Below, piece after piece: positions 33,792 through 44,387 of a DNA stretch of 64,000 nucleotides. Under the pieces are notes generated by a model, which was given only the letters and a program-made list of their open reading frames with translations, did not search any database and was not told the DNA's origin. The stretch is taken from the IMG/VR virus record IMGVR_UViG_3300036760_000689, positions 46,117 through 110,116 of that record; one strand, written 5' to 3'. How positions within the stretch are numbered: the stretch's first letter is position 1; each line of letters starts with the position of its first letter. This stretch comes from a virus. The translations under genes were made by a program, and so were the position numbers.

Positions 33792-34516
33792 TTATGAGGT
33801 GATGGCACTGAACATGAAGAATAAGCGCGGTGCCGGGAATAACAGGTTTCCTGCGAACAGATACTGCCCCGCCACGTCATCCGTGTTCTGCGCCTCTTTG
33901 AAACCCGTGAACCCGAACTGATATTTGGGAAGGGTCGAGATCCAGAACTGGATGTACTTCGTGTTGAGGCCGAAGATAAAATTTGCTGGGCAATACTGAT
34001 CGACGCAGACGGACGCGCCATTCCAACGCAAACTCTGGAATCCGATCTTCGCCACATCGGTTGATTCTTCCATGTATCTCTGTTGCGGCAGAATCTTGTT
34101 CCAGATGATGTTCCAGAGCGTTTGAGTGGTGACGATCAGGTCGACATGTTCGTTGCCGAACCAAGCAGCACCATAGGCGGTCTGAAATGCGGCCATCGTA
34201 AAGACTGTAGTCGAGGCATTGGAATAACCGTTGATGCCGGCATTGTTGGTGCCGTTAGCTACGCCGAGGTCAGTACGAGTAATACCGCCATATGAGGTAA
34301 ACCCTAAGGCGGTGCCATTATCCAACGCCTGCTGCATCCCATCGAGATTGATGGTTCCAGAGGTAACGCCAGTACCATCAAGGAAGATGTCGGTTCCCAG
34401 CAGTTTTGCCATCTTACCGCTGGCATTCACCATCTTGGATTCGACGTAATTCATCGCAGCCTCGGGGCCACGAGCCAGCACGTTGTCGGTACCGAAGAGG
34501 GTGACGTTCACGTAGT
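33792..34516 (-). CDS. Major capsid protein, exon 2
   Basis: Exon 2 supplies residues ~85-325 of the coat protein: VNVTLFGTDNVLARGPEA, then a helical spine (YVESKMVNASGKMAKLLGT), a beta core and a C-terminus rich in Phe and Pro (NLLFPAPRLFFMFS). Joined to exon 1 at 35259 through the codon T|AC it gives K-Y-Y-V-N-V-T, a continuous 325-aa protein of normal size for the HK97-fold coat family of short-tailed phages. The 239-aa frame starting at a GTG is the unspliced view of this exon. Confidence 0.88.
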
Positions 34517-35258
34517 CAGTTATGTTATCGAGCGGTTCTTTATCCGCTCTTCAGCGCGGTTACTGGATGCTGCGGGAAATCGCGCTGCTCAGACTATCTC
34601 TTCCCTTTCGGGCCGGGGTCTCTTGGAGAGGATTATCGTTGGGACTCACCTCTCTAGTCGTTACACCTTCCGCAGAACCTTTGCCCTCTGCGGCTTGGCT
34701 CGGCATTGTCTCTCCCGTTGAGAGTTCCACCGATTTCACCCGGTTTGTTCTAAACGCTTGGGCATCCTTATGGTTTAGGAATTGAGTCTTCTGGCAGAGA
34801 GTTATCCGTTGTGCGAATACTTCATCGCTAACAGGCTCGTGGCCACCCTTCTCATACCTCTTGCCGATCTTCTTGCTTGATCGGTTCAACTTTTCTAATT
34901 CCAATACCGTGAACCCCTGTTCCTGTTTGATCCTCAGATAAGGAGATAGCATCTTTGCTGCGGCAATGGATGATCGTGGGGAAAGTTGCAAAGTGTGAAC
35001 CATGGATGTATTGGGCGGAGTGATCGCCCCGCCAACGATATCTCGAATTTCGTACAGTACCCCAAGATTCTGCGAATAGAAGTTGATCTTCGCATAATAT
35101 TCATCTCGGGTCCTGTTGGGACGCCGGGAGTGAACTATCGAGATGCTTCCGTCGCAATCCAGAAATGCTGCAACGTATTCGAGCGCCAAACGCATAGAGT
35201 ACCTTCTAAGCAGCTACCGGCATTATACCACAATCCAGACCGAATAGCCGCACTAAGT
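34517..35258 (-). ncRNA. Group I self-splicing intron in the coat gene (742 nt)
   Basis: The coat gene is interrupted here. The 5' exon ends in U (CCGAAGU), the intron ends in G (ATAACTG), and an internal guide near 35208-35217 can form P1 with AAGU (including the U-G pair) and P10 with CUAC of exon 2. The P7 strands are visible: GACTA in R (34655-34659) and TAGTC in S (34592-34596), with the context GTAACGACTAGAG and AAGAGATAGTCTGAGC. P9-type hairpins (GAGCGG/CCGCTC at 34530-34549 and CAGCGCG/CGCGCTG) precede the 3' site. A stop codon soon after the 5' junction excludes an intein. Confidence 0.88.
34560..35195 (-). CDS. Intron-encoded LAGLIDADG homing endonuclease, 211 aa
   Basis: YVAAFLDCDGSISI at residues 7-20 is a LAGLIDADG helix with the catalytic Asp. 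A single clear copy means the protein would work as a dimer. Residues ~25-150 form the DNA-binding body. The last ~60 residues (from about VKSVELSTGETMPS to the end) are translated from the conserved intron core, P3 to P8, so they are probably an unstructured by-product of overlap between ORF and ribozyme. The ATG lies just after the internal guide. It would promote homing of the intron into intron-free coat genes. Confidence 0.85.
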   Translation of the reverse strand: MRLALEYVAAFLDCDGSISIVHSRRPNRTRDEYYAKINFYSQNLGVLYEIRDIVGGAITPPNTSMVHTLQLSPRSSIAAAKMLSPYLRIKQEQGFTVLELEKLNRSSKKIGKRYEKGGHEPVSDEVFAQRITLCQKTQFLNHKDAQAFRTNRVKSVELSTGETMPSQAAEGKGSAEGVTTREVSPNDNPLQETPARKGRDSLSSAISRSIQ

Positions 35259-35511
35259 ACTTCGGCACGACCTCAAGAGCCGTGTCCGTCTGTACGTAGG
35301 TAATATTGAACGTCCCCCCACGCTGGAAAGCCCCGCCGTTCAGCTCGGCAAATGCGATGGGGTGCCGGATGGAAGTTCCACCCTCAAACCGCTCCGCGTT
35401 GCGAGTCCGAAGACGAGTGAAGACGGGAGAGCTTTTATACACATTATCCACAAGTCTCGGGATTATGTGTTTATTGACCTTTCCCGTTATGTCATCCCAA
35501 GTGAGAGCCAT
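35259..35511 (-). CDS. Major capsid protein, exon 1
   Basis: Exon 1 encodes the first 84 residues plus one base: MALTWDDITGKVNKHIIPRL at the N-terminus, then RIRTRN-, GGTSIRHPIAF- and YVQTDTALEVVPK. Reading on past the junction adds 16 intron-encoded residues and a stop, giving a 101-aa dead-end product. The start has AGGAGGTTAAATTAGTT upstream. See exon 2 for the joined product. Confidence 0.88.
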
Positions 35512-35731: not shown

Positions 35732-36583
35732 TCAGGACTTACCTTCCGCGCGAAATTCCTGCGCAATGAGGCCAGCTAATCTGCCTGAACCATCGGCCTG
35801 AACATCATCAGGAATGCCCGAATCCTTCTTTTGAAGTCGTTGCTGCAAGGGGCCAAGCACTGGTTCCCCCCCGCCTGCTGCGTATGGAGTGTTATCGTTT
35901 TTGTGTTTTTCATCCCATCGCTTTTGCACGTCGGCTTCGATTGTTTCTCTGAGTTTCTTTTCTCGCGACTCCTTGGTCAAAAATTCGTAGGCGGCAGACA
36001 AATCCCCGCCGCGCTTTTGTGCCTCATCGAGGAGTGCTTGCCTCGGGAGTTCAATGCCGAAATCGGCTCGATGTCTTGACTGGAGATCGATGATGTCAAG
36101 AACGGCTGCGCCCAGTGCATCTCCACGCCGATTTACATCATCGGCAGTGAGAAGTTTGCCATCCTTGAGCATTGTTTGAAATTCGGTGACGGTGGTCGCG
36201 ACCGCCTCGAGTTGCAACTTCGTGGCTGCAACTTCCTCGCGCGCTACACGAAGTTGCCGTTGAAGTGCGGCTTGATCATCTGGGGATTCAAGATCATTAG
36301 GGTGATCTTCCCTGGTTTCGAGGGCTGCAAGCCGCTCTTTTGCCTCACGAGCCTCTTTCTGCATAGCCTCATATTGCGGTTTGGCCGTGTCGAACCATTC
36401 CCGATTTTTCCGGTGGATAACCTCGGCCTCCTTATTCCTCTTGTCGAGGTCATTCATCTTGCGCGAGAATTCATCTTGCCGCAAACTACCCTCTTGGAGG
36501 GCACTTAATTCTTTCCTTCTCGCTTCTCGTTCGGCCTCTGGTACATATCCCAGGAGCTTTTCGAGTTCCGCTGAGAGTGGCAT
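35732..36583 (-). CDS. Scaffolding-type protein, 283 aa
   Basis: A highly charged helical protein. Residues ~25-160 are heptad-like Glu/Lys/Arg/Ala segments with coiled-coil potential, and an acidic Pro linker lies near 95-105. The C-terminus ends with a basic/hydrophobic helix (SGRLAGLIAQEFRAEGKS). Size, composition and location directly upstream of the coat gene match phage scaffolds, which shape the procapsid and then leave. No protease motif is seen. Confidence 0.82.
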   Translation of the reverse strand: MPLSAELEKLLGYVPEAEREARRKELSALQEGSLRQDEFSRKMNDLDKRNKEAEVIHRKNREWFDTAKPQYEAMQKEAREAKERLAALETREDHPNDLESPDDQAALQRQLRVAREEVAATKLQLEAVATTVTEFQTMLKDGKLLTADDVNRRGDALGAAVLDIIDLQSRHRADFGIELPRQALLDEAQKRGGDLSAAYEFLTKESREKKLRETIEADVQKRWDEKHKNDNTPYAAGGGEPVLGPLQQRLQKKDSGIPDDVQADGSGRLAGLIAQEFRAEGKS

Positions 36584-40104: not shown

Positions 40105-41667
40105 TTAGAAACCTGCCTTTGTCATTCTCTGATCCAATTCCTTAATTGCGTTCAACAAAATAAATGGAAGAGCGTGACCTTGATAGCCCAGTAATTCTGT
40201 ATCTTCCGAATCATTGGGATTAAGCCGCATTTTAAGTTTTTCGATCATGTATGGAGCGATGGACATGATTTCCTGCGCGATCACTCCGATGTGTTCCCCA
40301 TCGTCCTTAAATCCACCCAGGCCATTATATCTATACCATACAGGACCAATCTCCCTGATAATATTCAGGCCATCGTGGAATCGGCCGGTTATGGTTTTGA
40401 TTCTCCGGTCGGAAACTATGCCCCATGTACTTGAGGTAGGCTTATAGGCATCATCAGTGCCAATCTCCAGAGCGTGTCCAGGACTCGCCGTCCCGATGCC
40501 GACGTTGCCAGTTCTTAATACTGTAAACACATCTGTCCCGCCAGCCAATCCTTGATCATTTACAGCAAAGACAGCACCGGTAGCATTCTGAGACAATCCT
40601 ATGACCACGGAACCTGGTCTTGTGGAATGAGCGTGACTAAATAAATTGATAGCTCCGCCATATCCAGCAGAACCAACACCAGCTTGGATACGAAGAGATG
40701 CGCTTCCGGTTTGGACAGCATCCGTTATGATATATCTATCAGTCGCCGCTCCTTGAATTTCAACATTTCCAGCAACACTTAATTTTTGTCCCGGACCCGT
40801 CGTCCCGATGCCGACGTAGCCGCCGCTTGGTTGCAGTAACAAGTTATAGACAGCGGTGTTTGCATCATTCCGCTGGACTTGCATCAAAACATCCCCGGTG
40901 CCAGACACCGCAGTATAGAGGCCGTACAACTTGGCTTCGTTCAATATCCCAAAACTTCCTTTTGCTGTGCCGGGTGTCATCCCAGTAGCGGATTGCCCCG
41001 CAACTTCTAACCTCACGTTCGGCCCCGTCGTCCCGATGCCGACCTTACCATTCGATTCAGTGATAACTGAATCACCTATGGCAGAGGCGCTAGTGAACTT
41101 TGCGATCTGCCCACTTGTTCCACTTAGAGCGTTCGCTTTCGCGTTGAATGTGTCCCAATCAGAATGGTCTAAATATCCGTCCACCGACGATGTGGCCTTG
41201 GGAATCGAAACCTGAGTCGCACCTCCGGATACTTGGCGGGTGGCATCGAATGCCAGAGGAGAAACTGCCGTAAGATTCCCCAGGGTCAAAGCACTCTGTT
41301 TCCCATTGAAGGTAGCAAAATCGGTGTGATCTAAATATCCATCCACGGAGGCGGTAGCCTTGGCAACGGCCAGCGTCCGATCAGCACTCAAGTCCCCGCC
41401 ACCTGTAAGGGGTGCTGTGGTGCTGATGGTACGAGTTGTTGGTACCTTACCAGCGAGATCTGTAACAAGACTAGTAACATCACTTTCGGCGTGCGTATGA
41501 GAAGTAGGAGCAAAACCTGAATGCCCTGCATCCGCATAGGCTAGGTGAGCCAGTTGATCGTGGTCTGCTCCAGGACCTGGGGGTCCTTGATCCCCATCTG
41601 GCCCTTTATCGCCTATCGGACCTTTATCACCAGATGCACTTATTTTGAGATCAGCGCCAAGTTCCAT
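40105..41667 (-). CDS. Tail fibre with collagen-like start and S74 chaperone domain, 520 aa
   Basis: Residues ~13-34 are collagen-like (GDKGPIGDKGPDGDQGPPGP). Then come DHDQLAHLAYADAGHSGFAP, repeated trimer units SVDGYLDHTDFATFNGKQ (~108-124) and SVDGYLDHSDWDTFNAKA (~161-178), IGTTGP-type beta helix turns, and from ~418 a peptidase S74 intramolecular chaperone: the self-cleavage Ser419-Asp420 with Lys424, then IGVIAQEI. S74 domains trimerise the fibre and are then cut off. This is the clearest receptor-binding fibre in the window. Confidence 0.85.
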   Translation of the reverse strand: MELGADLKISASGDKGPIGDKGPDGDQGPPGPGADHDQLAHLAYADAGHSGFAPTSHTHAESDVTSLVTDLAGKVPTTRTISTTAPLTGGGDLSADRTLAVAKATASVDGYLDHTDFATFNGKQSALTLGNLTAVSPLAFDATRQVSGGATQVSIPKATSSVDGYLDHSDWDTFNAKANALSGTSGQIAKFTSASAIGDSVITESNGKVGIGTTGPNVRLEVAGQSATGMTPGTAKGSFGILNEAKLYGLYTAVSGTGDVLMQVQRNDANTAVYNLLLQPSGGYVGIGTTGPGQKLSVAGNVEIQGAATDRYIITDAVQTGSASLRIQAGVGSAGYGGAINLFSHAHSTRPGSVVIGLSQNATGAVFAVNDQGLAGGTDVFTVLRTGNVGIGTASPGHALEIGTDDAYKPTSSTWGIVSDRRIKTITGRFHDGLNIIREIGPVWYRYNGLGGFKDDGEHIGVIAQEIMSIAPYMIEKLKMRLNPNDSEDTELLGYQGHALPFILLNAIKELDQRMTKAGF

Positions 41668-42518: not shown

Positions 42519-44387
42519 CTACGATACTAGTTGAGAGCTTGCTGGTGTCATAGGAGCCGTGGCAGGCATCCCTATTCCGCCACCGCCCTGTGCGGCCATT
42601 TTCTGTTTGACGATGTTGATGAGAATCTCTCTTCCTTCCTGCTCCAGATTCTTGCGAACACTATCCTTCATGCTACCCAGATCTAGGGCTTCGAGCGTAT
42701 TGTCTCGGTCAAAATCACCGCGACCGCGAAGACCCAAAATGAGTTGCTGTTGTTGCAACCGACTGGATTTGAGAAGCGAACCTGGCTGAACCATGAATTG
42801 GAATGAGCGCCAGTGCTCTTCAGGTGGTGTTCCTGCTGGGACCATCGTACCAGGATTCCAGTCAAAATCCTCCCACGTCATGCCATCGGATCCCAGCATA
42901 ATGATTCGACGTTGAAGACTATAAAACTGAAAAACATCCGCCATCATCTGTTGGCCTATTTCCTTCAGGAATCCTTCGATATATCTCACCTTGAGGCGAA
43001 CTAGGGTTTGCTGTCCTTCTTTCATCTGCTCCAGGGTATCGGCGGCGGGGATAATCCCTTTGCGACTGACCGCGCCGAGATCCACGAATCCAGCTTGAGA
43101 ATCCATTTCCTGCTGGACATAAAGCATAACCTGAAACACAAAGCCGGGAAGTTGAGGGGCTGGAGCATATTGTGGGGGCGCAATCGATGCCGGGGAATAG
43201 AATACTTTGGCTCCGGGCATGTTCGGATCCAGGTTTTTTCTAGCGGCAGGACCAAGTGCATTGTCGGGCATGATAATGGGTGGATTGACGGCTTTTTTGA
43301 CTGCATCCAGGATCCCGGCAAGAATATTATTCATCGTATCCTGGAGCGGGATCTGGTTACGAAACTCGCTGACTCCGGGCCATTGCCATGGCACTCGATT
43401 TAGTCTCAGGGCGGCGAATGGGAAACAACCATGATAGAATGGGTTGGGGCCATCATACAGAACGATTGGGCCACCCATGCAGATGAGTCGCCCTCTCGGA
43501 TACAACTTTTTCCCCGGTGCGACCACATATCCATGTTCTGTAACGACATCGCCCACAAAGACATCGGCATTTGAAGTGTTTTTTTGGTTATCCCTTAGCC
43601 AGAATTCTCGGTACAGGGACATCGGAATCACTGAATCCCGAAATTGCGAGGCCGACTGCCCAAAAAGTCGTTTCATTTGCGGGGAAAGAATTTGCCAAGC
43701 CCTCCCAAACATGCCCTGCCCAGCATTGCTTGCGGATGACTGAAATTGGGAATATTCCCTATCCGCTGGTACGGCAAATCCTTTGGTAGGATATTTTTCC
43801 TGAAACCATGCCAATGGTTTGGGTGAACGATAAATCACGCCGAGGGATCGTTGGAGAGTATGGCTTGGCCGGATCGGAATCACATCCATAGCCCCACAGG
43901 ATGTAAATTCGATCTCTCCCTCCCCATTTTTCAGATCTGGATTCCAGACGAGTCTGCCATATCCGATCGTAAGGGCAGCGTGGATAATGATCATGGCTAA
44001 GGTCATATCCACGTCCTCATTAAAAAACCATGCCCGAATCACCTTGTTCAGGACCTTGGCATGATCGTCGAAATTTTTGTTGGTGGCTTTGACTTCGAAC
44101 GATTGTCTGATATCGGTTAGATAGGACACCAACTGAATCAGATTGGTCCAGATCCTGTTGGAAACGGGCGCAGCCTTGTAGCTGGGACGCCTCTCTGTCC
44201 ATTGTCGGCCCATCAGGTAGTTGATATATCGATCCAATTGAACAATATCTTCATACCGCTCCAGTTCATCCTTGGCTTCTTCAAAGACAGCCTGACACCA
44301 TGATGAGACCTGCTTGTCGTGGTCGGATTGTTGCATGGAACGATCCATGCCACCAGAATCGTAACTATACCAACCTGGGAGGTTCAT
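42519..44387 (-). CDS. Portal protein, 622 aa
   Basis: The N-terminus contains WCQAVFEEAKDELERYEDIV and INYLMGRQWTERRPSYKAAP, the opening typical of portal proteins of short-tailed phages. The central wing and stem are present, with IDSQAGFV- and RLKVRYIEGFLKEIGQQM near residues 455-500, and a helical C-terminus with QQQQLILGLRGRGDFDR. The portal forms the dodecameric ring through which DNA is packaged. It follows the terminase by ~1.5 kb of small genes and has a promoter-like motif just upstream. Confidence 0.88.
   Translation of the reverse strand: MNLPGWYSYDSGGMDRSMQQSDHDKQVSSWCQAVFEEAKDELERYEDIVQLDRYINYLMGRQWTERRPSYKAAPVSNRIWTNLIQLVSYLTDIRQSFEVKATNKNFDDHAKVLNKVIRAWFFNEDVDMTLAMIIIHAALTIGYGRLVWNPDLKNGEGEIEFTSCGAMDVIPIRPSHTLQRSLGVIYRSPKPLAWFQEKYPTKGFAVPADREYSQFQSSASNAGQGMFGRAWQILSPQMKRLFGQSASQFRDSVIPMSLYREFWLRDNQKNTSNADVFVGDVVTEHGYVVAPGKKLYPRGRLICMGGPIVLYDGPNPFYHGCFPFAALRLNRVPWQWPGVSEFRNQIPLQDTMNNILAGILDAVKKAVNPPIIMPDNALGPAARKNLDPNMPGAKVFYSPASIAPPQYAPAPQLPGFVFQVMLYVQQEMDSQAGFVDLGAVSRKGIIPAADTLEQMKEGQQTLVRLKVRYIEGFLKEIGQQMMADVFQFYSLQRRIIMLGSDGMTWEDFDWNPGTMVPAGTPPEEHWRSFQFMVQPGSLLKSSRLQQQQLILGLRGRGDFDRDNTLEALDLGSMKDSVRKNLEQEGREILINIVKQKMAAQGGGGIGMPATAPMTPASSQLVS

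What the first reader, a model, noticed from the sequence alone, without database searches (positions are those of the whole stretch)
34517..35258. Group I intron in the coat gene with precise splice sites and an overlapping LAGLIDADG ORF
The coat protein is split. Joining CCGAAGU to ACTACGTG gives a smooth 325-aa protein. A guide sequence supports both P1 (with the U-G pair) and P10. P7 and P9 elements are in place. The endonuclease ORF runs through the ribozyme core, so its last ~60 residues are translated catalytic RNA. Coat-gene introns tie the element to an essential late gene.
Basis: partly seen in the sequence, partly recalled or inferred. Interest (0 to 1): 0.75.

Follow-up and report, generated by a model that had tools for sequence, protein, structure and literature searches.

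The report
Self-splicing intron in phage capsid gene
The main shell-protein gene of this uncultured phage is interrupted by a 739-base group I intron, an RNA predicted to cut itself out of the message, that also carries a DNA-cutting gene for spreading itself; this kind of element is known, but in this phage group the capsid gene is invaded at many sites, with five introns in one relative's gene.

Summary
The finding is real. On the minus strand the major head (capsid) gene is split, and the insert is a group I intron. Scanning 536 in-frame joins against uninterrupted relatives gave one best join: exon 1 ends at 35256 (U), the intron is 35255-34517 (739 nt, ends in G), exon 2 starts at 34516. 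Rfam's general model scores only 18.2 bits (cut-off 50), but a covariance model built from 12 related phage introns, without the window, gives 117 bits (E 2e-37) ending exactly at 34517. The ORF is an I-CreI/I-MsoI-like single-motif LAGLIDADG protein whose last 63 residues are translated from the catalytic core, as claimed; this is known 'core creep', here unusually long. Capsid-gene introns with LAGLIDADG ORFs are already known (mycobacteriophage LittleE). New here: five related phages also carry introns in this gene (nine sites in all, window included), one gene (L006) holding five. A conserved, undescribed RNA module lies in the capsid gene's leader.

The parts
35256..35511 (-). Major capsid (head) protein gene, exon 1 (codons 1-85 plus first base of codon 86)
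   Evidence: PHROG 9953 major head protein, E 5.9e-5; join scan
34517..35255 (-). Group I intron, 739 nt; 5' exon ends U, intron ends G
   Evidence: best of 536 in-frame joins; covariance model R1 117.2 bits, ends at 34517; RF00028 18.2 bits
33792..34516 (-). Major capsid protein gene, exon 2
   Evidence: PHROG 9953, E 5.2e-21; 25 viral contigs
34560..35195 (-). Intron ORF: single-motif LAGLIDADG homing endonuclease (I-CreI/I-MsoI-like), 211 aa; residues 1-148 domain, 149-211 translated ribozyme core
   Evidence: PHROG 5046 E 6.7e-9 over residues 4-148; LAGLIDADG_1 E 0.006; I-MsoI E 6.9e-5
35256..35261 (-). P1, exon strand AGUACU (terminal U pairs with G35203)
   Evidence: local fold, script
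35198..35203 (-). P1, internal guide GGUACU; overlaps the ORF's Shine-Dalgarno-like AGAAGG (35207-35202)
35206..35208 (-). UAG that ends exon-1 reading in unspliced RNA, just before the guide and at the ORF's ribosome-binding site
35186..35193 (-). P2 5' strand GCGUUUGG (pairs 34754-34761); LAGLIDADG domain is looped out between the two strands
   Evidence: fold; 8-bp run in 2.8% of shuffles
34754..34761 (-). P2 3' strand CCAAGCGU
34739..34743 (-). P3 5' strand (pairs 34613-34617)
34700..34733 (-). P4 (34728-34733/34700-34705) and P5 (34720-34724/34710-34714)
34665..34699 (-). P6 (34697-34699/34665-34667) and P6a (34686-34693/34670-34677)
34655..34659 (-). P7 5' strand GACUA (guanosine-binding helix; pairs 34592-34596)
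34626..34654 (-). P7.1 (34649-34654/34626-34631), subgroup IA feature
34603..34617 (-). P3 3' strand (34613-34617) and P8 (34610-34612/34603-34605)
34592..34596 (-). P7 3' strand UAGUC
34552..34587 (-). P9 (34581-34587/34552-34558); its loop carries an 18-nt insertion, absent from the four related introns aligned with it, that holds the ORF's UAA stop (34562-34560)
   Evidence: alignment, script
34530..34549 (-). P9.1 (34544-34549/34530-34535), GAGCGG...CCGCUC

Best explanation
A mobile group I intron of subgroup IA type sits in the major capsid gene of an uncultured tailed phage. The capsid pre-mRNA folds so that the guide GGUACU pairs with the end of exon 1 (P1); guanosine bound in P7 attacks after U35256, the freed exon attacks after G34517, and the joined message encodes a 326-aa capsid protein. 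The ORF between the P2 strands makes a single-motif LAGLIDADG endonuclease that would act as a homodimer on the intronless site CCGAAGTACT|ACTACGTGAA in related phages and copy the intron there by break repair. Shown: intron boundaries, core structure, family membership of RNA and protein, intronless alleles. Inferred from established group I biology: splicing itself, endonuclease cleavage and homing.
For: Two ORFs match consecutive parts of one major-head family. Intact relatives at about 58-88% identity. The best of 536 in-frame joins is unique and, without being asked to, has U before and G at the end of the intron. R1, built from 12 other phage introns, scores 117.2 bits, E 2.3e-37, and ends at 34517; introns in the loci that supplied it exceed Rfam's cut-off with 53-98 bits. 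Close alignment to L231, L237, L232, L239 up to the 3' end. BLASTN match to an annotated group I intron in cyanophage S-CBWM1 psbA. P1-P9 helices. LAGLIDADG protein related to I-MsoI/I-CreI, PHROG 5046, motif VAAFLDCDG with the catalytic Asp. Nine further introns in capsid genes of five related phages, with joins compatible with U|...G| (L006 intron 2 ambiguous).
Against: RF00028 itself gives only 18.2 bits, below its cut-off. P10 is not convincing and P1 alone could arise by chance. The minimum-energy fold of the trimmed intron prefers a competing pairing of the P1 loop with the P7'/P9 region. No transcript data; no close relative of the endonuclease found in viral contigs.
Confidence: 0.95

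Rival explanations
1. The same intron, but with the reader's splice site (35259|35258, 742 nt, 325-aa protein).
For: In frame, ends exon 1 in U, keeps the same 3' site.
Against: Lacks one of three tyrosines conserved in most intact relatives and is not among the 14 best joins listed; its P1 needs a bulge, whereas AGUACU/GGUACU is in the local minimum-energy fold.
Confidence: 0.04
2. A degenerate, no longer splicing intron; the capsid is made from two separate polypeptides or the contig comes from a dying lineage.
For: Exon 2 has a possible GTG start at 34511; the general Rfam score is low.
Against: Exons are intact and conserved, the core matches the subfamily consensus with 117 bits, and the LAGLIDADG motif keeps its acidic residue.
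Confidence: 0.03
3. An inserted free-standing homing endonuclease gene or an intein rather than an intron.
For: LAGLIDADG proteins occur in both (own knowledge).
Against: The insert is not in frame with both exons: exon 1 reads into UAG at 35208-35206, so no intein; a complete ribozyme core lies around and inside the ORF.
Confidence: 0.01

Closest known systems
Mycobacteriophage LittleE major capsid gene intron (PMC3706429)
   Same: Probable group I intron of 819 bp in a major capsid gene, with a LAGLIDADG-like ORF; exon ends U, intron ends G; splicing shown by RT-PCR and protein sequencing
   Different: Its ORF lies on the opposite strand and its ribozyme class was left unclear; the window's ORF is on the sense strand and runs through the core; different phage group
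Subgroup IA phage introns (T4 td type; here L231, L237, L232, L239 in IMG/VR)
   Same: Core sequence, P7.1, P9.1 and 3' end GCGGATAAAGAGCCGC..GATAACA..CTG
   Different: Those aligned cores have no long ORF through them; the window has an 18-nt longer P9 loop with the ORF stop
I-CreI / I-MsoI single-motif LAGLIDADG endonucleases
   Same: About 150-aa domain with one motif, E 6.9e-5 to I-MsoI
   Different: Those come from algal chloroplast rRNA introns (own knowledge); low identity; target of the window enzyme unknown
Core creep (PMC3073962)
   Same: Endonuclease ORF extended into the ribozyme core until the next stop; the published table lists overlaps up to 81 nt, including a LAGLIDADG case over P6-P9
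   Different: Here about 190 nt, from the 3' strand of P2 to the P9 loop
Multi-intron phage genes: Twort gene with three introns (Landthaler and Shub 1999, as cited in PMC11878797), Bastillevirinae polymerase and terminase genes with up to three (PMC11878797)
   Same: Repeated invasion of one phage gene by group I introns
   Different: Relative L006 has five in a capsid gene; the window itself has one

Membership tests
Group I self-splicing intron | 5' exon ends in U, intron ends in G, precise in-frame excision | tested here: met
   same pattern at the other capsid-gene introns (L006 intron 2 is ambiguous)
Group I self-splicing intron | Conserved core P3, P4, P5, P6, P7, P8, P9 | tested here: met
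   covariance model R1 117.2 bits, E 2.3e-37
Group I self-splicing intron | Score above the Rfam RF00028 gathering cut-off | tested here: inconclusive
   18.2 against 50 bits, while introns in the loci that supplied the subfamily model reach 53-98 bits; the ORF and long P1 loop probably stretch the general model
Group I self-splicing intron | P1 with U.G pair at the 5' splice site | tested here: met
   AGUACU/GGUACU, though 16% of shuffles also offer 6 bp
Group I self-splicing intron | P10 between guide and 3' exon | tested here: inconclusive
   only CUA (34515-34513) with UAG (35208-35206), from the sequence
Group I self-splicing intron | Splices with guanosine cofactor | not testable with these tools
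   needs RNA
Subgroup IA2 | P7.1 and P7.2 between P7 and P3' | tested here: inconclusive
   P7.1 present with a 3-bp extension, no clear separate P7.2
LAGLIDADG homing endonuclease (I-CreI type) | One LAGLIDADG motif with catalytic acidic residue in a domain of about 150 aa | tested here: met
   VAAFLDCDG in residues 1-148; I-MsoI E 6.9e-5, PHROG 5046 E 6.7e-9; Pfam LAGLIDADG_1 17.9 bits, below its 23.1 cut-off
LAGLIDADG homing endonuclease (I-CreI type) | Cuts the intronless allele at the insertion site | not testable with these tools
   intronless alleles exist
Phage major head protein (PHROG 9953) | Joined exons align over the family's length | tested here: met
   exon 1 to positions 7-77, exon 2 to 96-321 of 329; 326 aa against 320-325 aa in full-length relatives

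The most novel reading that the evidence does not exclude
In this phage group the capsid gene is a standing landing zone for group I introns (nine sites, up to five introns in one gene), and in the window the endonuclease's ribosome-binding site lies on the splice guide while its ORF spans the whole core, so that translating the endonuclease and splicing the capsid mRNA exclude each other and capsid output depends on that switch.
Probability: 0.2. Interest if true: 0.6.

Novelty: new member of a known kind. Interest (0 to 1): 0.42.

Why it matters
Phage group I introns are usually reported from nucleotide-metabolism and DNA-replication genes (PMC12350094 calls the preference mysterious). A virion-structure gene repeatedly invaded at different sites, once five times, gives a natural series (intact alleles, ORF-bearing introns, ORF-less introns, one intron whose endonuclease has lost its motifs) in which the homing cycle can be read directly. 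It also shows that the general Rfam model misses such introns in metagenomic phages and that split capsid genes can be mistaken for separate subunits.

Tried and rejected
(3) Idea that introns choose the most conserved DNA: the window site is in the 97th percentile of 20-nt conservation, but the nine sites together are not better than random (p 0.32). (4) Idea that the open frame through the core is itself improbable: 8% (mononucleotide shuffle) to 15% (Markov) for the window, so core creep by drift is enough. (5) Leader upstream of the capsid gene as a second group I intron: its GAGCC..GGAAGGUG looked similar, but R1 gives at most 4 bits. (6) Close relatives of the endonuclease in viral contigs: none; in named phages only about 26-32% identity, in Gordonia, Caulobacter and Mycobacterium phages and one uncultured phage. 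(7) Another RF00028 or R1 match in the 110-kb record: none.

Full report
What is there. The window is the last 64 kb of a 110-kb IMG/VR virus record. Around the finding the genes lie on the minus strand in a structural block: terminase large subunit (45868-47757), portal (42519-44387) and a tail-fibre-like gene (40105-41667) by PHROGs, then among others an unassigned 283-aa ORF (35732-36583) and the split head gene. The two halves of the head gene match positions 7-77 and 96-321 of one 329-position family, PHROG 9953 major head protein.

Splice sites. About twenty related viral contigs carry the same gene uninterrupted there and read K-(Y/F/A)-Y-Y-V-N at the junction, most of them K-Y-Y-Y-V-N. 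I enumerated every in-frame join within about 20 nt of both boundaries and scored the product against four intact relatives. Of 536 joins the best is exon 1 ending at 35256 and exon 2 starting at 34516. Although U and G were not required, this join has the group I signature U|...G|. It gives 326 aa, against 320-325 aa in full-length relatives.

RNA. Rfam as a whole-window scan finds nothing. In a restricted scan RF00028 aligns over its whole length at 18.2 bits, E 0.087 over 4227 families, roughly 2e-5 for the single family asked (my division). To get a sharper test I searched viral contigs for the P7/P7' pattern of the window; 13 loci came back, holding 16 RF00028 matches over the cut-off (53-98 bits). 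Twelve of the introns found by the pattern were aligned without the window and made into model R1. R1 hits the window once, at 34703-34517, with 117.2 bits and E 2.3e-37, ending exactly at the predicted last intron base, and hits nothing else in the record. The P7 motifs were part of the pattern, so that part of the score is not independent; P6, P7.1, P8, P9, P9.1 and the 3' end were not in the pattern. The alignment with L231, L237, L232 and L239 shows one main difference: an 18-nt longer P9 loop in the window. Free folding finds P1 locally and P2-P6, P7.1, P8 and P9.1. P7.1 points to subgroup IA, as in T4 td (own knowledge of td).

Protein. The ORF starts at 35195 behind AGAAGG and has one LAGLIDADG motif. 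It matches PHROG 5046 (named HNH endonuclease there, but the match is over the LAGLIDADG domain; E 6.7e-9), Pfam LAGLIDADG_1 weakly, and I-MsoI and I-CreI among solved structures. The domain ends near residue 148 at the 3' strand of P2; the other 63 residues are read from P3 to the P9 loop, where the stop lies. The same habit is seen in the other ORF-bearing introns of this gene: the ORFs of L006 introns 1 and 5, L099, L060 and L025 end 0-32 nt before the 3' splice site, and that of L061 83 nt before it. Edgell, Belfort and colleagues named this core creep (PMC3073962); their tabulated examples overlap by up to 81 nt. For the window an open frame of this length is not surprising (8-15%).

Relatives with introns. 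Splitting the head protein into three queries and searching again gave more than a hundred contigs; most gaps are contig ends. Five others have introns in the head gene: L025 and L099 (same site, codon 24), L060, L061 and L006. L006 has five introns, of 678, 181, 215, 281 and 1089 nt, and removing them gives an intact protein close to the relatives. Introns 3 and 4 and the L061 intron are hit by R1 (19-23 bits), intron 3 also by Rfam (E 0.0041); introns 3-5, L025, L099 and L060 share one core family. Intron 2 is less certain: its best protein joins lack the U/G signature and the U/G join scores slightly lower. L025's ORF has lost the acidic residues of both motifs.

How it works. Splicing, cleavage and homing are inferred from established group I biology. 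Two details in the window are worth a test: the ORF's ribosome-binding site shares bases with the P1 guide, and the reading frame of unspliced exon 1 ends at UAG immediately before the guide. Both suggest that ribosomes starting on the ORF would compete with 5' splice-site recognition; this is inference. Sequestration of the ribosome-binding site and splicing defects caused by ribosomes in the intron are published for T4 td (PMC3073962).

Known or new. Capsid-gene group I introns with LAGLIDADG ORFs are known: LittleE, spliced in vivo (PMC3706429), a paper that also cites a capsid-gene intron in lactococcal phage Tuc2009. Intron-rich phage genomes are known, for example the Jug phages (PMC12363816). 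For introns per phage gene I found at most three in the papers searched (PMC11878797), so five would exceed those, but the search covered open-access papers only. The window's element is therefore a new member of a known kind.

Noticed in passing
window 35731-35512 (minus strand), module at 35652-35630; also leaders of L027-L104: The leader between the 283-aa gene and the capsid gene carries a conserved RNA module, GGAA-hairpin-N(G/C)A(A/G)-CC, sometimes twice. Strict form: 37 times in 78 leaders (1.875 per kb) against 0.010 per kb in the rest of the same loci; the outer base pair forms in 31 of 34 distinct copies. No Rfam family, not group I. Possibly a control element of capsid expression.
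   Followed up: partly
L006 1281-4696 (IMGVR_UViG_3300036761_003996): One major capsid gene with five group I-like introns, two of them with LAGLIDADG ORFs. L061, another contig of the same metagenome, also has a capsid-gene intron.
   Followed up: partly
capsid genes of window, L006, L025, L060, L061, L099: All nine distinct intron sites lie in the first 275 nt of a gene of about 975 nt, although the exon-1 query would have shown later ones; five of the nine are in one genome, so they are not independent.
   Followed up: partly
L025 3004-3810: Intron whose LAGLIDADG ORF has lost the acidic residues of both motifs (LDAAS, LEACG), has a shortened 3' end and a changed P7 pair (GACCA/TGGCC): looks like a decaying stage of the homing cycle.
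   Followed up: no
L231, L232, L235, L237, L238: Two RF00028 or intron matches (three in L232) close together in each of these viral contigs, one pair separated by an exon of about 60 nt: multi-intron phage genes look common in IMG/VR.
   Followed up: no
window 35214-35205 with 34593-34584: A 10-bp complementarity between the P1 loop and the P7'/P9 region that wins in nested folding; perhaps chance, perhaps an alternative fold that blocks splicing.
   Followed up: no
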